Source: Roseiflexus sp.
Lineage (GTDB): Bacteria > Chloroflexota > Chloroflexia > Chloroflexales > Roseiflexaceae
NCBI GenBank assembly: GCA_025062325.1
Contig: JANXAL010000076.1
Span: forward strand, 1-64,000
DNA: 64,000 nucleotides
Direction of reading: 5' to 3'
Of this stretch, positions 8,018 to 54,440 are shown in pieces (positions within the stretch are counted from its first letter, which is position 1; each line of letters opens with the position of its first letter). Below the pieces are notes generated by a model that did no database searches, was not told where the DNA came from, and was given only the letters and a program-made list of their open reading frames with translations. A program made the translations under genes and the position numbers.

Positions 8018-9121
8018 TCACACGAGTGACCCCATGATCCGCACCGGCACAATCCGTCCATTCCAGCGACCTGGCACTGCGTCGAACCGTCCCGGCAGCG
8101 GATGACCGCAGCGCACACACCGACCGGCAGCGTCGAGCCGCCAGCGTTTCAGGCGATGCCAGTCACGCTCGATGACACGCGCCCCGCAACCGGCGCAGTA
8201 CGTTGCCTGCCCATCGGCGTCGTAGACATTCCCGGTGTATACGTAGCGCAGACCAGCGGCAAGCGCCTGCTCGCGAGCGCGTTTCAACGTTGCAGGCGGC
8301 GTCGGCGGCGTGTTGAGCATGCGATAGTCGGGATGGAACGCCGTAAAGTGCAACGGTACGTCAGGGCCAAGTTCGTTCACGAACCAGTCGCACAGGCGCG
8401 CGATGTCGTCCGGCGAGTCATTGGCGCCGGGGATGATCAGGTTGGTCACTTCTAACCAGACGTTAGTTTCGTGGCGCAGCCAGCGCAGCGTATCGAGCAC
8501 CGGCGCCAGCGAGCCGAGACACAGCTTCCGGTAGAACTCCTCGCTGAACCCCTTGAGGTCGATGTTTGCAGCATCGATATGCTCAAAGAAGGCAGGCCGC
8601 GCCTGTGGCGAAATGTACCCTGCCGACACGACGACCGTCGCCAGTCCGCGTTCGTGCGCTGCGCGCGCACAGTCAATCGCGTACTCGGCGAAAATGACCG
8701 GATCGTTGTAAGTAAAAGCCACGCTGCGACACCCCGCGGCAAGCGCCGCCTCCGCAACCTCCTCCGGCGTCGCGCGCGCGTCGAGCAGCGCCATTTCGCG
8801 CGCTTTGGAGATCGACCAGTTCTGGCAGAAACGGCACCCCAGATTGCACCCAGCAGTCCCAAAGGAAAAGACCCCGGTGCCGGGGAAGAAATGAAAGAGC
8901 GGCTTCTTCTCAATCGGGTCGGCGCAGAAACCGGATGCGCGACCGTACGATGTCAGAACGATCCCCTCCTCGCGCGCCTCGCGCACGAAGCAGAAGCCGT
9001 GTTGACCAGGGCGCAGCGTGCAGCCGCGCGGACAGAGATCGCACTGAAAGCGGCCGTCGGCGGTGCGATGCCACCACTCGCCGAGAACGACGCCAGGCTC
9101 AAGCAGTGTGCGTGCGTTCAT
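8018..9121 (-). CDS. amrS: AmmeMemoRadiSam-type radical SAM enzyme (AmrS)
   Basis: The protein has 367 residues. The radical SAM cluster motif is CNLGCRFCQNW (C-x3-C-x2-C). An N-terminal cysteine block (CDLCPRGC, about residue 26) and a C-terminal zinc-ribbon-like pair (YCAGCG ... CVRCGHPLPG) are typical of this pyruvate formate-lyase-activase-like family. The family is named for genomic association with AMMECR1 and Memo proteins, neither of which is adjacent here, so the substrate is unknown. The ATG at 9121 has AAAGGAGG a few bases upstream. It converges with recF. Confidence 0.88.
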   Translation of the reverse strand: MNARTLLEPGVVLGEWWHRTADGRFQCDLCPRGCTLRPGQHGFCFVREAREEGIVLTSYGRASGFCADPIEKKPLFHFFPGTGVFSFGTAGCNLGCRFCQNWSISKAREMALLDARATPEEVAEAALAAGCRSVAFTYNDPVIFAEYAIDCARAAHERGLATVVVSAGYISPQARPAFFEHIDAANIDLKGFSEEFYRKLCLGSLAPVLDTLRWLRHETNVWLEVTNLIIPGANDSPDDIARLCDWFVNELGPDVPLHFTAFHPDYRMLNTPPTPPATLKRAREQALAAGLRYVYTGNVYDADGQATYCAGCGARVIERDWHRLKRWRLDAAGRCVRCGHPLPGRFDAVPGRWNGRIVPVRIMGSLV

Positions 9122-9177
9122 GACGGCCTCCTTTGGTAAACTGTTGCTATCAGAGAGTCTACACCTTTTTGAGAGAG

Positions 9178-9245
9178 AATCAAGAACTAATAATCGAGAA
9201 CCAAGAACCGAGAACTAAGAACTGAGAACCAGGAACCGAGAACCT
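9178..9245. repeat. Simple repeat of GAGAACCAAGAACC words
   Basis: About ten imperfect copies of the 7-mer (C/T)GAGAA(C/T)/AAGAACC run from the upstream side of the radical SAM gene toward 9245. It is low-complexity intergenic DNA with no coding character. The rest of the gap up to 9404 holds only a stem-loop. Confidence 0.65.
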
Positions 9246-9336
9246 TGGCGCCGTACTGCTGCGCTATCGCCAGCGCAAGGACAAATGCGCGTCTTCGTGT
9301 CCTCTCAAGAATCACGATGACCTCCCACAGAAGGAA

Positions 9337-9381
9337 CTGGCGCCGGCGAGCAATGTCCATATCTCAAAGCGCCGGCGCCAG
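9337..9381. terminator. Strong GC stem-loop downstream of the decarboxylase
   Basis: CTGGCGCCGGCG at 9337-9348 pairs perfectly with CGCCGGCGCCAG at 9370-9381 across a 21-nt loop. It lies 24 nt beyond the decarboxylase stop on the minus strand. There is no U-tract, so it may protect the 3' end rather than terminate by itself. Confidence 0.5.
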
Positions 9382-9404
9382 CCTTGCCAACAGGACTTCT
9401 CTGC

Positions 9405-10997
9405 TTAGCTCCGAATCCCGCTTCTCATGCGCATCTCCCGCCTCTCGGCGCCATAGCGCAGCAGCGGTGTGTGACGCGGCGCGTTGCGGCGGCGCGCCGG
9501 GCGTTGTGGACGAATTGGTTCACGCGGCGCGCGGCGATCCACCGGTACGCGCTCTGGTTGAGACGCTGGAAATTCTAGCGTTCCGCAGGCGTATCCCAGC
9601 AGACCCATGATCTGCCCCAGGTTCTGCGGCGCAATTTCGCGCACCACCAGTGCATCCTCGTCCCGCTCGATGATGACCCGCCGCATTTCAGGCGTCAGGC
9701 AATGGTGCGCACCACCGCGACCGGCAATCATCTGCTGGTACGCGCCGACGCCAAAGAACGCCAGTTTTTGCCCGGGATACGGATCGGGCAAAAGCAGCGG
9801 CGGCGAACCCGGTCGTGGAAAGAAGTCGTCGCTATCGCAGGTCAACCGGCCTGCCAGCCGCACCGAACGCACCGGCCGGTCCCAGCCGTCGAGCGGCAGG
9901 ATGATGAATTCCTGCCCCGGTACGATCAGGCTGTCTGGCAACGAGACCATCAGGCTGCCATTGAGCAGCGCCCAGTCTGGCGCATCACCCTGCCCGCGCT
10001 TGACCCTCCCGACCTCCATGATGAACACGTTGTGCGACGCAACCGTGTAGCGACCAAATTCGCCAACCAGCGTCGGCTGCGGAATATCGCAGGTGTTGCA
10101 CACTGATGCGAGTGTGTTCATTAGGCGCTCAAGGAAGCCGAGATAGTCGAAACGAAAGTCGAGCGAGTAGGCGGACGTCGGCATACCGCCGCCAAAGTTG
10201 AACAGCCAGAGCGATGGCGCGCGCTGCCGCAGGCGGGCATACGCCTCCGCCGAGCGCGCCAGGCGCCTGTTCCAGCGATCAGGATCCTCGATCTGGCTCC
10301 CTACCATTGCATGGTACATGACCAGGCGATGCGGCGTATGTCGCAGCCGCTCAACCACATGCCCGATCTCCTCTGGCGTCAGTCCAAACCGCTCACCGCC
10401 AGGATGGTTGACATCGATATCCGCAGGAGCGTGGCGCTCGCGGACGCCAAGGAGCAATGGTTCACGGCACGTTGTCAGCAAGGTTTCGAGTTCGTCGAGA
10501 TCGTCGATGACCGGTACAACGCGCGTAAACCCTGCATGGCGCAACGCAACGATTGCGGCAATGTAGGCGTCATCCTTCGAGCCATTGCAGAAAATGAACC
10601 GCTCCGGCGACAGGATGCCCTGCTGCCAGAGATAATGCGCAATAGCGACATCCGCTGCCGCAGACGTCTCGTAGTGCGCACCGGAATTGAGAGCGGTACG
10701 CACAACTTCTTCCGCAAAATTAGCCTTTGTCGCATAGGCGTAGATAAAGCCGCCAGCGTACCCGCTGCGCGCACGCGCTGTTTCCGCCCACTCACGCATG
10801 CGCTCGATCTGCACGGTGATCTGCGGGCAGTAGACAACTTCAAGCGGCGCTCCATAGCGCGCCACCATTGCGTTGAGATCGATTTGATCCGCCAGAAGCA
10901 AGCGGTCGCCGCGGCGACTGATAAAATCGTTGATCTGTCCTTCGGGGCCGACCCCATAACGGTCGGTGAACGCGGTGACGTAGGTCTGCCCATTCAA
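9405..10997 (-). CDS. PLP-dependent group IV decarboxylase, probably arginine decarboxylase
   Basis: The protein has 530 residues with an alanine-racemase-like barrel. Lys91 in YAYATKANF is the expected Schiff-base lysine. GGERFGLTPEEI, VMYHAMVGSQI, FNFGGGMP and the later VGEFGRYTV are family blocks, followed by the beta-barrel domain (FFGVGAYQQM). The family includes ornithine, diaminopimelate and arginine decarboxylases; length and motifs are closest to the arginine-type group, so it probably makes agmatine for polyamine synthesis. The last 60 residues are an Arg/Pro-rich tail of doubtful function. I chose the TTG at 10997 because AAGGAGGT lies ten bases upstream; a nearby ATG is out of frame. 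The gene has a long leader with a terminator hairpin. Confidence 0.8.
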   Translation of the reverse strand: MNGQTYVTAFTDRYGVGPEGQINDFISRRGDRLLLADQIDLNAMVARYGAPLEVVYCPQITVQIERMREWAETARARSGYAGGFIYAYATKANFAEEVVRTALNSGAHYETSAAADVAIAHYLWQQGILSPERFIFCNGSKDDAYIAAIVALRHAGFTRVVPVIDDLDELETLLTTCREPLLLGVRERHAPADIDVNHPGGERFGLTPEEIGHVVERLRHTPHRLVMYHAMVGSQIEDPDRWNRRLARSAEAYARLRQRAPSLWLFNFGGGMPTSAYSLDFRFDYLGFLERLMNTLASVCNTCDIPQPTLVGEFGRYTVASHNVFIMEVGRVKRGQGDAPDWALLNGSLMVSLPDSLIVPGQEFIILPLDGWDRPVRSVRLAGRLTCDSDDFFPRPGSPPLLLPDPYPGQKLAFFGVGAYQQMIAGRGGAHHCLTPEMRRVIIERDEDALVVREIAPQNLGQIMGLLGYACGTLEFPASQPERVPVDRRAPREPIRPQRPARRRNAPRHTPLLRYGAERREMRMRSGIRS

Positions 10998-11391
10998 TTG
11001 GAGTGAACCTCCTTCATCTGCACGAGGCTGGCGTTGCCGCCAGCGAAACGAGTCCAGAAAACGCGACCAGACTCGCCCTGCAGATCAATGGGCATACAAA
11101 AGCCCCGCACCCTGGCGGTGCGGGGCGCACAATCAAGAGGTTCGTCAGAGGGGACGATCCGGAACAACGAGCGCCAAACCACACGCCAGAGAGCGCGTCT
11201 GCTCAAGGCGCAACAGGTCGCAGCGGAATAAATTGGCTTTGCCGTCCATACATCATTCCTGAACGCTCTGCCGGGTCCATCGGTTCATCGGTCGATGAAC
11301 GACTCCTGTGATGGCACTCCAAAAACCATAGCGCACCACTGCGCGGGTTTTTGCCGGAGAGCACGGATTCCTTGCGGCGCATAGACGCCGA
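10998..11391 (-). promoter_or_regulatory. Long 5' leader of the decarboxylase gene
   Basis: From the predicted transcription start near 11391 to the TTG start, the leader is about 395 nt. It contains GC-rich pairing segments, a perfect 10-bp terminator hairpin at 11102-11126 and a second structured stretch before the ribosome-binding site. A small ORF (ATG at 11382, 59 codons, no clear ribosome-binding site) starts about ten nt from the predicted 5' end. This layout suits transcription attenuation or a riboswitch, but no known riboswitch consensus was recognised. Confidence 0.5.
11098..11126 (-). terminator. Intrinsic terminator inside the decarboxylase leader
   Basis: GCCCCGCACC and GGTGCGGGGC form a perfect 10-bp stem with a 5-nt loop. 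On the minus strand it is followed by TTTTGT. It sits about 100 nt upstream of the decarboxylase start, so read-through must be possible for expression. Confidence 0.65.
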
Positions 11392-11397
11392 TGCAAT

Positions 11398-11425
11398 ATT
11401 GTAGTGGTTTTTGATGCGATGTCAA
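11398..11425 (-). promoter_or_regulatory. Sigma-70-type promoter reading toward the decarboxylase
   Basis: On the minus strand a perfect -35 box TTGACA (11425-11420) and a -10 box TACAAT (11403-11398) are separated by 16 bp. The predicted start is near 11391. Confidence 0.7.
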
Positions 11426-11504
11426 GAGGGAAATTGCCGCTTTGCCCCGCTGGATCGCGGGGAATGACTTCCTCTCCGCTAATCGCCAATTACATCGCCG
11501 CGCC

Positions 11505-11757
11505 GCAGGCCTTTACGCTGCACCACTCGTTTCCGGCAACGGGACGCCCCAACTCCCCTCTTCCTCACAAGTGTAGATTTTTTGGCGCGCCCTTCTATTG
11601 CATCGCTCGTTTCAGGCAACCGGACGCCCTAACTCCCCCTCCTCCCCTTGCAGGAGAAGGAGGCAGGGGGGATCAGGGGAACACAGGCGTCAGGATGCGG
11701 AAAACGCCTACTACCCCGTTGTAGCGCCCGTTGCGGGGATGAAAACCTCCACTCTAA
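11505..11757. repeat. MITE-like dispersed repeat (one partial and one nearly full copy)
   Basis: A left terminal repeat CTCACAAGTGTAGATTTTTT begins at 11564 and is followed by the conserved internal segment (CATCGCTCGTTTCAGGCAAC, then a CCCCCTCCTCCCC...GGAGAAGGAGG hairpin and GGCGTCAGGATGCGGAAAACGC). The right end is degenerate near 11757. A truncated copy of the internal part precedes it (11505-11563). The element abuts the 3' end of the amidohydrolase gene. Between this repeat and the decarboxylase promoter (11426-11504) I see nothing else. Confidence 0.7.
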
Positions 11758-50133: not shown

Positions 50134-50235
50134 CATGGATCGCGACGGATCGCTATGGATGATGATCTCTTCTCCTGATCCGTGAACCTCCGTCGCATCC
50201 GTATCAATCCGTGTCCTATTCAATCCGCGTCCCAT
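50134..50235. repeat. ACGGAT-type dispersed repeat
   Basis: Inverted arms of GGATCGCGACGGATCGCTAT and ATCCGTGAACCTCCGTCGCA words match the family at 54.2-54.4 kb. It ends about 30 nt before the STAND gene stop. Confidence 0.6.
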
Positions 50236-50262: not shown

Positions 50263-52551
50263 TCACCCCCAGCACTGCCCCGTCTCCACAATCGCCTGCG
50301 CCAGCGCCGCCACCGCTGGCTGGCCGCTGCGCTCGCCGAGCGCCACGATCCATGGTGCCAGCGCAGTGAGATCGCGCAGCAGCGCCGGGCGACCGTGGCG
50401 GGCAAGGCGGCGCAGGGTCTCGGCGAACAGCCCGGCGGCGTCACCGCACGCTTCAGCGAGGCGCGGCGCCAGCGCCCCCAGCGCTGCAGCGCGGTGCCAC
50501 TCCTTAGCAAGGGCGTCGGCGGCCTGCAGCGCCTGGTCCAGCAGGGCAGGCGGCAGGTGCGGCGCCAGCGCTACCAGCGCCGCGGCGCGGTGCCTCTCTT
50601 CGGCAATGGCAGCGGCGGCCTGCAGCGCGGCGGTGAGCGCCTGCGTCTGGCGGGGCTCGGACAGGTGCGGCGCCAGCGCCCCCAGCGCTGCGGCGCGGGC
50701 CCACTCCCAGTCAATGGCGGCGGCGGCCTGCAGCGCGGCGGTGAGCGCCTGTGTCCGCTGGGGCTCCGACAGGTGCGGCGCCAGCGCCCCTAGCGCCCAC
50801 ACGCGGGCTTCCTCATCAGCAAGGGCAGCGGCGGTCTGCAGCGCGGCATCCAGCAGGGGTGGCGGCAGGTGCGGCGCCAGCACCTCCAGCGCCGCGGCGC
50901 GGGCTTCCTCATCGGCAATTGCCTGCGCCACCTCCAGCGCCCGTTCCCACGGCAGCGCGATGCCGTGTTCGACCAGCGCCTCGAGGCATGCCGCCTGCTT
51001 CGCCGCATCTGGCATTTGCGCCACGTGTTCCAGCGCTGCGGCGGCGCTCCATTTGCCCGCCGTCGTGCCGGTGGTCACCAACTGCACCAGCAACTCCGGG
51101 AACAGGTTGCCAGCCCGGCTGCGCAGGCTGGCGGCGATCAGCGCGCAGCGCAGCATCAACCCCAGATCACCCTGCTCTTCGGCGTGGCGCCAGAGGACGT
51201 CGAGGTCGCTCAGGTAGCCGGTGTCGCTCCCCTCGGCGGCGTGGCGCGCCGCCTGCCACGGCTGGATGAAGTGCTGTCCATCAGCGTCCGGTACGATCTC
51301 GGTGACCACCTGCCGTACCCGCTCCCATTGCCCGGCGGCGACCAGGTGCGCCACCCAGAACTGGCGCAGGTAGTCGGGCAGCGGCTGGCGGCGGTCAGCG
51401 TACCACGCCTCGCCGTAGGCGATCAGTCGCTGCTGGAGCCGCTCGCGATCCTTTGGCGGGTAGATCTGTTCGAGAAAGACTTCGCGCAGGCGCTGGTGGC
51501 TGAAGACGTAGGTGTGCTCGCCGACGGTAATAATGAAGCGGGCCACCTGGTCGTCGCTGACCGCATCCACGATGTCGCTCTGTTCGCCGAAGACCTCCGG
51601 CGCCAGCGCCTGCAGATCGTCGGCGGTCAGCGGCCCGTAAGCTGCCGCGCACAGCGCCAGCAGTTCGCGGATCGTCCGGCTGGCCTGCCGGCGCTGCCGC
51701 AGCGTCTCCACCCAGTCTTTGAGGAAGGCTTCGAGACCGGGCGGCCGCCGGGTCATTGACTCCGGCGTGATCTGGCCGCTGATGAGCGCCTTGATCAGCA
51801 GGTTGGCAGTCAATGGGTCGCCTTCGCTGACGCGATAGAATTGCTCGACAAACGCCGGGTCATCGGCAAATGGCGCCAGCGCCGGGCCGCTCTGGCGGAG
51901 CAGGGCGGCGATCGCGGGCTTTGCGAGCGCATGCAGGTCGAGATGCTGCACCGCCGCGGCGTTCCAGCCCAGATGGTGCAGCCAGTCCTCACGGGTGGCA
52001 TTGGCACGCTGCCGCGCCGAGACGACGATCTTGAGCCCGGTCTGTGGCGGCGCGACGCAGAGCGGTCCCACCGTCCAGCCAACCGCTTCGTCAATGCCGT
52101 CGAGGACGACCAGCGCCTGTGCGCTGGACGGCAGCGGGCGGCGCAGGTAGTCGGCGATCAGGGCGCGCAGGCTGGTGGGTGACTGGTCGTAATTGCGGAA
52201 CTGCTCCAGATCGTCGTGCAGGTCGGCAAGGCTCTGCGCAAGCAGGCTCAACGCCGTCTGCTCGCTGGCGGTCTGGTAGCGAATGCTGATCGGCGCGAAG
52301 ATGATGCGCCATTGCGGGTGCTGCTGCTGCACGCGGGCGATCCAGCGGACGAGCAGGGCGGTTTTGCCGATGCCGGTCGGCGCGACGAGCAGACCGAACG
52401 GGTAGCGCGGGTCGGCCAGGAAGGCGTCGAGCGCAGCCAGTTCGGCATCGCGCCCGCCGAAGACATCGGCGGCGTAGTGCTCGATCAGCGGGCGCACCAG
52501 CGCGCTGAGCCTGACCGGCAGCGGGCGCAGGATCTCTTGATAGATGGCCAT
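50263..52551 (-). CDS. STAND/NACHT-type ATPase with C-terminal helical repeats
   Basis: The 762-residue ORF has an FGGRDAELAALDAFL entry region, Walker A in LLVAPTGIGKTALLVRWIA (about 53-71) and a Walker B-like acidic strand ALVVLDGIDEAVGW. Helical winged regions follow (RFIITVGEHTYVFSHQRLREVFL). The last 250 residues are repeats of about 36 residues with ALQAAAAI...RAAALGALAPHL, spaced 96 or 108 bp. It is a signalling switch-type NTPase; repeats probably sense or bind a partner. It lies 20 nt after the caspase-like gene if its original start at 52644 is counted. An in-frame stop interrupts the natural N-terminus; this ATG may be a secondary start without a ribosome-binding site. Confidence 0.8.
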   Translation of the reverse strand: MAIYQEILRPLPVRLSALVRPLIEHYAADVFGGRDAELAALDAFLADPRYPFGLLVAPTGIGKTALLVRWIARVQQQHPQWRIIFAPISIRYQTASEQTALSLLAQSLADLHDDLEQFRNYDQSPTSLRALIADYLRRPLPSSAQALVVLDGIDEAVGWTVGPLCVAPPQTGLKIVVSARQRANATREDWLHHLGWNAAAVQHLDLHALAKPAIAALLRQSGPALAPFADDPAFVEQFYRVSEGDPLTANLLIKALISGQITPESMTRRPPGLEAFLKDWVETLRQRRQASRTIRELLALCAAAYGPLTADDLQALAPEVFGEQSDIVDAVSDDQVARFIITVGEHTYVFSHQRLREVFLEQIYPPKDRERLQQRLIAYGEAWYADRRQPLPDYLRQFWVAHLVAAGQWERVRQVVTEIVPDADGQHFIQPWQAARHAAEGSDTGYLSDLDVLWRHAEEQGDLGLMLRCALIAASLRSRAGNLFPELLVQLVTTGTTAGKWSAAAALEHVAQMPDAAKQAACLEALVEHGIALPWERALEVAQAIADEEARAAALEVLAPHLPPPLLDAALQTAAALADEEARVWALGALAPHLSEPQRTQALTAALQAAAAIDWEWARAAALGALAPHLSEPRQTQALTAALQAAAAIAEERHRAAALVALAPHLPPALLDQALQAADALAKEWHRAAALGALAPRLAEACGDAAGLFAETLRRLARHGRPALLRDLTALAPWIVALGERSGQPAVAALAQAIVETGQCWG

Positions 52552-52644
52552 GGCGCCGTGACCAATGGCAATGCCTTTGCCACTGACATCGTCAACATTG
52601 ATGGCGCCACTGCCTGATGGTTCAGGGATGTGCTACTGCGTCAT
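52552..52644 (-). pseudogene. Original 5' end of the STAND gene, broken by an in-frame TAG
   Basis: Reading from the ATG at 52644 in the frame of the STAND protein gives M-T-Q-stop-HIPEPSGSGAIN and then VDDVSGKGIAIGHGA, running without another stop into the ATG at 52551. The last motif is nearly the one in the upstream caspase-like protein. GAGAGG precedes the ATG closely. The TAG at 52635-52633 is the only lesion seen. Confidence 0.65.
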
Positions 52645-52664
52645 AGCCTCTCTATGGCGTCACG

Positions 52665-53969
52665 TCATTCACGAGTAGCGGAATCCTGCCTGGCCTTCTC
52701 CGCCACTTTGCGCGCAACAGTTGCGAAGGCGGCCTGTGGTCCCGTCAGCGCAGCCACGGTGACCTCGAAGATATCTTCAGCCATACCGGCGAGATTGCGC
52801 AGCCAGCGGGTCAGCTTGTGCTCGTTTGCCTGCTCGCCCTTCGCCGCCTCCTGCTCGATCTTCTTGACTGTCTCAACGATCTCTTCTTTGTCCACGTGCG
52901 GGTCGTCCGGTCGGGCTGTGATGGCGGCATAGATCTGCGCAAACGCACGAACAAATGCGTCGTGATCGCCGCCGCTCTGCTGCACGTGAGCCTGCGCGCC
53001 GCGCCCAATCGCAATCCCTGTGCCGCTGACGTCGCCGACGCTGATCTTGTCGCCGCCAACATAATCGCCGCCGGTCTGGATCACGTCGCCGCCCGCCTGA
53101 ATAGTGTCGCGCCCGGACTGGATCGCAGTGTTACGGTTGCCGGTGATGATCACGCTCTCGCTGACCGACCCGCCGATGCCGACCGCTCGCGCGCCGCTGA
53201 CCGACTGCTCCAGCGCCCACTGGCTACGCTCCGGGGTCACCTGGCGCAGCGCAACCCCCTCCGGCGGCGCGTGGTCGGTCGGGAAGGCGCCGGGGGCTGT
53301 GACGCCGCGGAACAGCGCGATGGGGAACGGGCCAACCCCCTTGAGCACGGTCAGCTCCGGTTCCTGCGTTTCGCCGTAGCGACGGCGCAGTTCAGCCGAG
53401 ACGCGCTGCGCCACCGCGTCGCCGACAGCAAAGTAGAGGTGCGTGTAGAGGTCGAAGACGCTGATGTACCCGGCTCTCCCGCTCAGCCCCTGCCCGCGCA
53501 GCCCGTCGGTGAGCGCCTGCGCAAAGAGGGTGAGCGGGCCGGGACCAATGTAGGCGACCTGATTCTCGCGGCAGGCGGTGATGATGATCCGCCCGCTGCC
53601 GGTGGCGAGGATGGCGTCCGCCGCCTGCTGTGGCAACTGCTGACCGATGAAGGGTTGGTTGCTCTCCCCCAGGACGGGCGAGATCTCCCCGGCGTGACAG
53701 GCGTTGATCAGCAGGATGAGCCGCCGCGCCGGAATCGCGCGCAGTTTGTCGAGCAACTCGGGCTGGCTGATCCCTGTGCCAGCCACGACCTTGCGCCCCG
53801 CCAGCCGGGTGTCGTGGGTGGTCAACTGGTAGACGCCGTCGGCGCTGTACTCGCCATGACCGCTGTAGAAGAACAGTACCGTATCGTCGGGCGTCGTGCG
53901 CGCCGCCAGGTCAGTGAGCGCAGCGAGGATGCCGGCGCGGGTCGCGCCCGCATTGGAGAGGAGCGTCAC
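52665..53969 (-). CDS. Caspase-like (C14) protease with glycine-rich beta motif, N-terminally damaged
   Basis: The 434-residue ORF (GTG start) holds most of a caspase p20 fold: VTLLSNAGATRAGILAAL, the catalytic His38 in FFYSGHGEY and Cys91 in LLINACHAGEI. A middle region of short beta repeats (GNRNTAIQSGRDTIQAGGDV ...) ends in VGDVSGTGIAIGRGAQAHV. The C-terminus is a helical domain (KEEIVETVKKIEQEAAKGEQ, then RWLRNLAGMAEDIFEVTVAAL). The domain's first beta strand is missing from this frame but present in another frame directly upstream, so the gene is frameshifted. It is followed at once by the STAND ATPase gene. A role in regulated proteolysis or cell suicide is inferred from family. Confidence 0.75.
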   Translation of the reverse strand: MTLLSNAGATRAGILAALTDLAARTTPDDTVLFFYSGHGEYSADGVYQLTTHDTRLAGRKVVAGTGISQPELLDKLRAIPARRLILLINACHAGEISPVLGESNQPFIGQQLPQQAADAILATGSGRIIITACRENQVAYIGPGPLTLFAQALTDGLRGQGLSGRAGYISVFDLYTHLYFAVGDAVAQRVSAELRRRYGETQEPELTVLKGVGPFPIALFRGVTAPGAFPTDHAPPEGVALRQVTPERSQWALEQSVSGARAVGIGGSVSESVIITGNRNTAIQSGRDTIQAGGDVIQTGGDYVGGDKISVGDVSGTGIAIGRGAQAHVQQSGGDHDAFVRAFAQIYAAITARPDDPHVDKEEIVETVKKIEQEAAKGEQANEHKLTRWLRNLAGMAEDIFEVTVAALTGPQAAFATVARKVAEKARQDSATRE

Positions 53970-54019
53970 CTGCGCCTCGGGGTAACCGCGATGAGGGCAT
54001 AACCGTGAGCGAAGGACAT
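53966..54019 (-). pseudogene. Out-of-frame start of the caspase-like gene
   Basis: An ATG at 54019, preceded by AAGGAAGGAAAGG, encodes MSFAHGYALIAV, the expected first beta strand of bacterial caspases, and then runs into TGA. The catalytic-domain frame resumes at RGYPEAQVTLL within the same DNA. Roughly 30 residues that normally lie between these segments are absent, so a frame-changing deletion near 53985-53998 is the simplest reading. Confidence 0.65.
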
Positions 54020-54149: not shown

Positions 54150-54440
54150 CCCACAGATTGCCACGGATCATTGCTCCCATCCCCGCCGATCCGTGCCCAT
54201 CCGTTGCATCCGCGCCAATCCGTGTCCTATTTGATAGGACGCGGATTGCCACGGATCGAGACGGATTGCCACTGATGACCTCCCCCTGATCCGTGAACAT
54301 CCGTCGCATCCGTGTGGATCCGTGTCCCATTCAAGAGTACACGGATTGCCACGGATCGAGACGGATTGCCACGGATGATCATCCCTCCCCCACATCCGTG
54401 AACATCCGTCGCACCCGTGTGGATCCGTGTCCTATTCTCA
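54150..54440. repeat. Tandem ACGGAT-type repeats between the caspase and MFS genes
   Basis: Two nearly identical blocks (about 54237-54330 and 54341-54432) each contain GGATTGCCACGGATCGAGAC, then GGATTGCCAC, and the inverted arm CCGTGAACATCCGTCGCATC. A partial inverted arm precedes them (54150-54235). They fill most of the gap 54020-54525. A TATAAT at 54466-54471 may serve the MFS gene. Confidence 0.7.

What the first reader, a model, noticed from the sequence alone, without database searches (positions are those of the whole stretch)
50263..54019. Caspase-like protease and STAND ATPase joined by a shared DVSGxGIAIGxGA motif
The sequence shows a His/Cys-dyad caspase fold followed at once by a Walker A/B STAND-type ATPase with tandem helical repeats. 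Both reading frames contain the same glycine-rich motif (VGDVSGTGIAIGRGA in the caspase; VDDVSGKGIAIGHGA at the STAND N-terminus). Caspase and STAND proteins are known components of bacterial conflict and regulated-death systems, especially in filamentous bacteria. A shared motif at the two partners suggests an assembly tag, such as beta-strand pairing, through which the ATPase recruits the protease. That last step is inference.
Basis: partly seen in the sequence, partly recalled or inferred. Interest (0 to 1): 0.75.

Follow-up and report, generated by a model that had tools for sequence, protein, structure and literature searches.

The report
Matched tags link caspase and STAND
Two neighbouring bacterial genes, a cell-death-type protease (caspase) and an immune-receptor-type ATPase (STAND), carry matching short glycine-rich tags; comparable matched pairs recur in other bacteria, so the tag probably lets the receptor recruit the protease, although the copy in this particular genome looks damaged.

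Summary
The motif is real in both reading frames and is conserved protein sequence, not low complexity: omega is 0.043 in the caspase motif segment versus 0.118 in the catalytic domain. Corrections to the finding: the STAND copy lies before the first ATG, behind an in-frame TAG; the caspase has a 100-nt deletion and frameshift near its start, so this copy is probably decayed.

A profile search of 158 related genomes gives 46 motif-bearing frames: 19 caspases (motif always C-terminal to the catalytic domain), 11 STANDs (always N-terminal), 4 CHAT proteases, 12 others. Adjacent caspase/partner genes carry matched tags of several types, better matched than re-paired genes (12 pairs, stratified p = 0.001). 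Relatives of this STAND carry a CHAT protease fused where the tag sits.

Best reading: a short homotypic coupling tag that recruits a caspase to a STAND sensor. It works like Kaur's effector-associated domains or BASS amyloid motifs. No Pfam domain covers it. Amyloid nature is untested; AlphaFold was uninformative. New variant of a known kind.

The parts
53990..54019 (-). Stub of the caspase start, MSFAHGYALI, cut off from the rest by a 100-nt deletion (junction 53990/53989) and frameshift
   Evidence: DNA alignment with the intact L039 caspase; reading frames
52665..53969 (-). Caspase (Peptidase_C14) open frame, GTG start, 434 aa, lacking the N-terminal strand/helix of the fold
   Evidence: Pfam C14 E 1e-13, profile positions 46-212 of 233; intact relative matches 2-212
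53856..53858 (-). Catalytic His codon (SGHG)
   Evidence: Sequence; invariant in alignment A4
53697..53699 (-). Catalytic Cys codon (NACHAG)
   Evidence: Sequence; invariant in alignment A4
52977..53168 (-). Gly/Asp/Asn-rich tag of the caspase (units VSESVIITGNRNTAI, QSGRDTIQAGGDVIQTGGDYVGGDKI, VGDVSGTGIAIGRGAQAHVQQ)
   Evidence: Shared with neighbouring genes in relatives; motif segment omega 0.043
52995..53039 (-). Motif copy 1, VGDVSGTGIAIGRGA
   Evidence: Pattern match; profile hit 7e-19
52686..52949 (-). TCAD2 domain (PF19971) at the caspase C-terminus
   Evidence: Pfam E 3.3e-43
52633..52644 (-). Apparent original STAND start ATG ACG CAG followed by an in-frame TAG stop
   Evidence: Sequence; frame translation
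52552..52596 (-). Motif copy 2, VDDVSGKGIAIGHGA, in the STAND frame but before its first ATG and behind the TAG
   Evidence: Pattern match; same position in the STAND of G003 (L044), G034 (L049) and G073 (L096)
50263..52551 (-). STAND ATPase ORF, 762 aa: NTPase about 51022-52506, then helical repeats about 50266-51015
   Evidence: Pfam AAA_16/AAA_22; relatives in 15 of 158 class genomes; helical repeats diverge fast

Best explanation
The motif is the core of a short, modular, homotypic coupling tag that occupies the adaptor slot of a two-gene caspase/STAND system: C-terminal to the protease domain in the effector and N-terminal to the NTPase in the sensor. When the STAND protein is triggered through its variable C-terminal sensor (helical repeats here; FGE-sulfatase or WD40 in other members) and oligomerises, its N-terminal tags would gather the tags of the neighbour-encoded caspase, bringing caspase domains together and activating them, probably for regulated cell death or phage defence. 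Shown here: the tag, its constraint, its fixed position, its association with caspase/CHAT/STAND proteins, its pair-specific matching in adjacent genes, and direct CHAT-STAND fusions in the same STAND family. Inferred: physical tag-tag binding, oligomerisation, caspase activation and the biological outcome. The copy in this window is probably a recently damaged locus (caspase start deleted and frameshifted, STAND start interrupted by TAG).
For: Motif present with 0 mismatches in both frames, 0.10 expected by chance. Constraint: 13 of 24 synonymous but only 3 of 75 nonsynonymous sites changed, omega 0.043. The two copies in the window differ by 9 synonymous codons over 26, so they are not a recent DNA duplication. 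Position rule in 46 frames: 19/19 caspases C-terminal, 11/11 STANDs N-terminal, 4/4 CHAT N-terminal. Adjacent motif+motif pairs in four loci: the window, L044, L049 and L053. Own-pair tag similarity exceeds composition shuffles (window Z 9.7) and exceeds re-pairing: 12 pairs, free p 5e-6, stratified by partner type p 0.0011; pair-specific letters such as GHQAQA in both G034 partners and GGDYAEGTLDKR in both G057 partners. Other tag types are matched the same way in Nostoc, Calothrix and Tolypothrix, where the partner's tag lies in or next to Pfam EAD10. Fusion: STAND-family members L179 and L186 carry a CHAT protease in the N-terminal slot. Literature frame: EAD principle (PMC7159879).
Against: No direct evidence of binding; AlphaFold uninformative. 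12 of 46 motif frames have no caspase/CHAT/STAND domain in frame, though several are fragments at contig ends or in broken genes. In G009 and G050 the STAND partner shares only the QSGRDTI...GDK unit, and in G047 the match is weak (own score 40, not best). Within the six closest pairs alone the test is weaker (14 of 720 permutations, p about 0.02). Profile hits were seeded from caspase and STAND sequences, which favours finding them.
Confidence: 0.62

Rival explanations
1. The tag is bound by a common third component (another conflict-system protein, or TCAD2 acting with it), so both proteins carry it to join the same hub rather than each other.
For: TCAD2 proteins without caspase or STAND also carry a related Gly/Asp-rich segment just before TCAD2 (L152-L155); CHAT proteins and some others carry the motif without an obvious matched neighbour found here; the Pseudanabaena relative belongs to a MoxR/VMAP-type neighbourhood.
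Against: No conserved third gene in the Chloroflexota caspase/STAND loci listed; pair-specific matching of different tag types favours direct homotypic matching.
Confidence: 0.17
2. The tag is a flexible or structural spacer spread by domain shuffling and recombination between neighbouring genes; similarity within pairs reflects shared ancestry or gene conversion, not interaction.
For: Glycine-rich and repeat-like; unit number varies between relatives; adjacent genes could exchange sequence by recombination.
Against: Very low omega in the motif segment; strict position rule; silent-site divergence between the two window copies; several unrelated tag types obey the same pairing rule.
Confidence: 0.13
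3. The tag is specifically an amyloid-type (HET-s/BASS-like) motif: activated STAND templates a cross-beta fold that propagates into the caspase tags and polymerises the protease.
For: Same genomic set-up as BASS and HET-s/NWD2: effector-side motif after the effector domain, receptor-side motif at the N-terminus of the NLR, adjacent genes (described in PMC7889193). Short, G/N/D-rich units with alternating hydrophobics such as GIAIGRG. BASS motifs are reported also on CHAT and TIR effectors.
Against: No significant sequence similarity of the window tags to three published signalling-amyloid peptides (caspase vs BASS3 Z -0.4, STAND Z 4.1). BASS1-10 profiles and amyloid predictors were not available. 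The caspase motif is internal, followed by TCAD2, not at the very C-terminus.
Confidence: 0.3

Closest known systems
Effector-associated domains (EADs; Kaur et al. 2020, PMC7159879), especially EAD10 (PF19954)
   Same: One copy on a core/sensor protein and a second on an adjacent effector, often a caspase; copies in adjacent genes are more alike than others; the same effector can be fused directly to the core. In cyanobacterial relatives the partner's tag lies in or next to an EAD10 match.
   Different: No EAD model matches the tag in the window protein or the intact relative. The tag is Gly/Asp-rich and repeat-like rather than a helical domain, and its partner is an ATPase with an intact Walker A rather than VMAP or iSTAND.
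BASS bacterial amyloid signalling motifs (Dyrka et al. 2020, via PMC7889193 and PMC8086366)
   Same: Short motif shared by the N-terminus of an NLR/STAND protein and the effector encoded next door; described in filamentous bacteria; occasional CHAT effectors.
   Different: Effector is a C14 caspase with TCAD2 rather than a Bell domain; the effector-side motif is internal; no significant similarity to the published BASS3 peptide; amyloid formation untested.
HET-S/NWD2 amyloid signalosome of fungi
   Same: Adjacent genes; receptor-side N-terminal motif and effector-side motif after the effector domain.
   Different: Effector is a protease, not a pore-forming HeLo domain; no sequence relation tested.
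CHAT-STAND fusion proteins
   Same: Caspase-clan protease coupled to the same STAND family (L179, L186).
   Different: Protease is covalently fused; here it is encoded separately and the slot holds a tag.
TCAD2 (PF19971, ternary complex associated domain 2)
   Same: C-terminal domain of the window caspase; stand-alone TCAD2 proteins carry a related Gly/Asp-rich segment before the domain.
   Different: TCAD2 is not found on the STAND partner in these loci.

Membership tests
Peptidase_C14 caspase | C14 fold with His/Cys dyad | tested here: met
   Pfam E 1e-13 over profile 46-212; SGHG and NACHAG present. The first about 45 profile positions are missing because of a deletion, so the fold of this copy is incomplete.
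STAND NTPase (AAA_16-like) | P-loop NTPase with Walker A and a C-terminal repeat/sensor region | tested here: met
   AAA_16 E 1.6e-7, AAA_22 5.5e-7; APTGIGKT; helical repeats.
EAD coupling domain (Kaur) | Copies on core protein and on adjacent effector, most alike within adjacent pairs | tested here: met
   12 pairs, stratified permutation p 0.0011; position rule.
EAD coupling domain (Kaur) | Matches a described EAD family | tested here: not met
   Pfam scans of the window proteins (E up to 1) and of the intact relatives (E up to 10) list no EAD. Hence filed as 'works like an EAD', not as an EAD.
BASS amyloid motif | Motif shared by NLR N-terminus and effector encoded by the adjacent gene | tested here: met
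BASS amyloid motif | Sequence matches one of BASS1-10 | tested here: inconclusive
   Only one BASS3 peptide was available for comparison; no significant match on the caspase side, Z 4.1 on the STAND side. BASS profiles not available.
BASS amyloid motif | Forms amyloid / cross-beta | not testable with these tools
   AlphaFold models had pLDDT 35 and 38; needs peptides.
MoxR-vWA ternary system | MoxR ATPase and vWA protein next door | not tested
   No family scan was run on the neighbouring genes of the window locus. A MoxR ATPase is annotated near the Pseudanabaena relative, whose neighbourhood also has a VMAP-C protein.

The most novel reading that the evidence does not exclude
A modular code of short Gly/Asp/Asn-rich tag units, gained, lost and re-matched between neighbouring genes, wires caspases to STAND, NACHT, VMAP and FGE partners in Chloroflexota and Cyanobacteria, acting as amyloid-type adaptors that give each pair its own specificity; the DVSGxGIAIG unit would be a signalling-amyloid family for bacterial caspases not covered by the family libraries used here.
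Probability: 0.25. Interest if true: 0.75.

Novelty: new variant of a known kind. Interest (0 to 1): 0.52.

Why it matters
Bacterial caspases are widespread but how they are switched on is mostly unknown. A short tag, matched within each gene pair, that wires a caspase to a STAND receptor would be a minimal bacterial parallel to the apoptosome or inflammasome. It gives a directly testable handle (tag swap or deletion) and a search principle, tag matching between neighbours, for finding receptor/effector pairs that domain libraries miss.

Tried and rejected
AlphaFold on the intact L039 caspase (2-row alignment) and on its tag+TCAD2 fragment (3 rows): pLDDT 35 and 38, not used; deeper alignments were not possible under the rule on admissible sequences. 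Searches of solved structures with the tag, the caspase and the motif profile: nothing significant. tblastn of a 32-aa motif consensus in plasmids and phages: no match, a weak test because the query is short. Caspase relatives in viral contigs: none; the motif profile could not be used there. Cyanobacterial genomes could not be surveyed because the centre must be a genome handle; plasmid records were used instead. The idea that the two copies are a recent DNA duplication was rejected (9 silent differences over 26 codons). Low complexity without conservation was rejected. BASS3 identity by sequence was not supported. Family-wide motif search: outside the window's own order no hit at E <= 1e-3 in 400 phylum genomes, so the exact unit looks lineage-restricted, with the caveat that a 30-residue profile is insensitive.
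Full report
What is in the window. On the minus strand lie two adjacent genes. The upstream one (52665-53969, GTG start) encodes a caspase (Pfam C14, E 1e-13, with SGHG and NACHAG) followed by a Gly/Asp/Asn-rich tag and a TCAD2 domain (E 3e-43). The downstream one (50263-52551) encodes a STAND-type ATPase with helical repeats. The motif occurs at 52995-53039 and 52552-52596; a degenerate pattern finds exactly these two sites, with 0.10 expected.

The locus is damaged. Compared with the intact caspase of L039 (a Chloroflexi MAG, the same contig as G009), the window sequence keeps the first 10 codons (54019-53990), lacks exactly 100 nt, and resumes out of frame. The open frame therefore misses the first strand and helix of the fold (profile 46-212, against 2-212 in L039). 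In the STAND gene, ATG ACG CAG at 52644 is followed by TAG; the motif is in frame behind this stop, and the first usable ATG comes just after it. In relatives, a STAND of this family carries the motif at its very start (G003: MEVGDSISTGDVTGQAIAIGHGARAVYQAILRPLPV). So the motif belongs to the N-terminus of the STAND protein, but in this genome it is probably not translated from a normal start. Whether these lesions are real or assembly errors cannot be decided here.

The motif is conserved protein sequence. Between the window and L039 caspases, the 33-codon motif segment has 13 changes over 24 synonymous sites and 3 over 75 nonsynonymous sites (omega 0.043); the catalytic domain gives 0.118, the rest of the tag 0.32, TCAD2 0.089. 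The two copies inside the window have 6 identical, 9 synonymously different and 11 nonsynonymously different codons of 26, so they are not a recent duplication. The STAND helical repeats diverge fastest (dN 0.54), as expected for a sensor (inference).

Where the motif occurs. A profile of 15 sequences found 45 matches in 24 of 158 class genomes; a broader profile found 43 matches in 18 of 400 phylum genomes, all in the window's own order. Scanning the fetched loci gave 46 motif-bearing frames: 19 with a caspase domain (motif always C-terminal to it), 11 with a STAND, NACHT or NB-ARC domain (always N-terminal), 4 with a CHAT protease domain (N-terminal), 1 with TCAD2 only, and 11 with no such domain in frame, several of them fragments. 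The profile was seeded with caspase and STAND sequences; the CHAT, NACHT-FGE and WD40-NB-ARC proteins were not seeds of the first profile.

The tag is modular and matched between neighbours. The caspase tag consists of units resembling VSNSTIITGDGNTV, QSGRDTIQAGGDVxQxGGDYVxGDK, GDVSGxGIAIGxGAQAxV and, in other members, NTGGGDYAEGNIDKR. Neighbouring partner genes carry one or more of the same units: the last in G052 and G057, the second in G009 and G050, the third in the window, G003, G034 and G049. In cyanobacterial plasmids quite different tags are matched the same way: Nostoc NQRGKYNINIGQGNGLRIGD against TQLGKYNISIGQGQNIQIGD, Tolypothrix HGKFITNINEAHSIHIGD against LGKYITNIEEGKDIHIGD, Calothrix SGDQNVEQSGSDNINIGQIG against SGDQTVLQLGNGNVNLGDIG. 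Those partners match Pfam EAD10 over a stretch that includes or borders the tag. A test on 14 pairs gave free-permutation p 2e-5 and stratified p 0.0016. Two of those pairs (Herpetosiphon and Pseudanabaena) had partners picked after seeing the similarity; without them, 12 pairs give free p 5e-6 and stratified p 0.0011. Within the six closest pairs the exact result is 14 of 720. The number of pairs is small and shared ancestry is not fully removed by stratification.

Fusion evidence. Two more distant members of the same STAND family carry a CHAT (caspase-clan) protease directly in the N-terminal slot: L179 from G055 (CHAT E 9e-27) and L186 from G072 (CHAT E 3e-31). The slot that holds the tag in this family can thus hold the protease itself, which is what the coupling model predicts.

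Most likely mechanism. The STAND sensor, once triggered, oligomerises and presents N-terminal tags that gather the tags of the neighbour-encoded caspase, activating it by proximity, probably in regulated cell death or phage defence. Shown: sequence, constraint, position, association, pair matching, fusion. Inferred: binding, oligomerisation, activation, outcome. I give 0.62 to homotypic coupling. The amyloid version is a sub-case at about 0.3, with no sequence match to the published BASS3 peptide on the caspase side and no structural evidence.

Relation to what is known. Kaur et al. describe effector-associated domains with this same logic: a copy on the core protein, a copy on an adjacent effector, closest relationship within adjacent genes, and direct fusions in other cases (PMC7159879). 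Dyrka and colleagues describe BASS motifs shared by NLR N-termini and effectors of adjacent genes, mostly Bell domains but also CHAT and TIR (PMC7889193; PMC8086366). The window element fits this logic but matches no EAD model in Pfam, has a C14 caspase with TCAD2 as effector, and places the effector-side motif internally. I therefore file it as a new variant of a known kind. That caspase-linked tags of this type have not been described elsewhere is not established: the original BASS paper and supplementary tables were not readable here.

Noticed in passing
window 50134-50221, 54153-54231, 54250-54332, 54350-54437: The caspase/STAND cassette is bracketed by copies of a dispersed intergenic repeat of about 88 nt (48 matches in the genome). 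It may mark a mobile or recombination-prone cassette, or be coincidence.
   Followed up: partly
L048 (G049:C10) about 8795-11626: A close relative of the window STAND carries the full tag at its N-terminus but is interrupted by an in-frame TAG inside the ATPase region, so this STAND family shows a second interrupted gene.
   Followed up: no
L152-L155: Small stand-alone TCAD2 proteins (142-184 aa frames) in other Chloroflexota carry a related Gly/Asp-rich segment (for example SIAIGGDVNNSNIVMGDNNV) just before TCAD2.
   Followed up: partly
L039 629-1849 and L062 7909-9117: An NB-ARC-like gene begins with MDSDQPQQNQDISGAGAAGVGGDATNSPITTGDNN..., nearly the same tag segment as the L039 caspase. In L039 it is divergently transcribed next to the caspase; in G003 it lies far from its caspase.
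   Followed up: no
L053 3709-9829; L057 1-4525; L104: A second type of pair: caspase with tag plus a NACHT protein with a C-terminal FGE-sulfatase domain, matched by tag units in the same way.
   Followed up: partly
L118 (Pseudanabaena sp. ABRG5-3 plasmid): A caspase 50% identical over most of its length sits in a MoxR/VMAP-type neighbourhood; the VMAP-C protein and the caspase share a GGGD(Y/F)xxGxxDK tag.
   Followed up: partly
L180 (G006:C17 46500-66400): Three STAND homologues of this family lie in tandem in one region of about 15 kb, with a helical N-terminus instead of the tag in the copies read.
   Followed up: no
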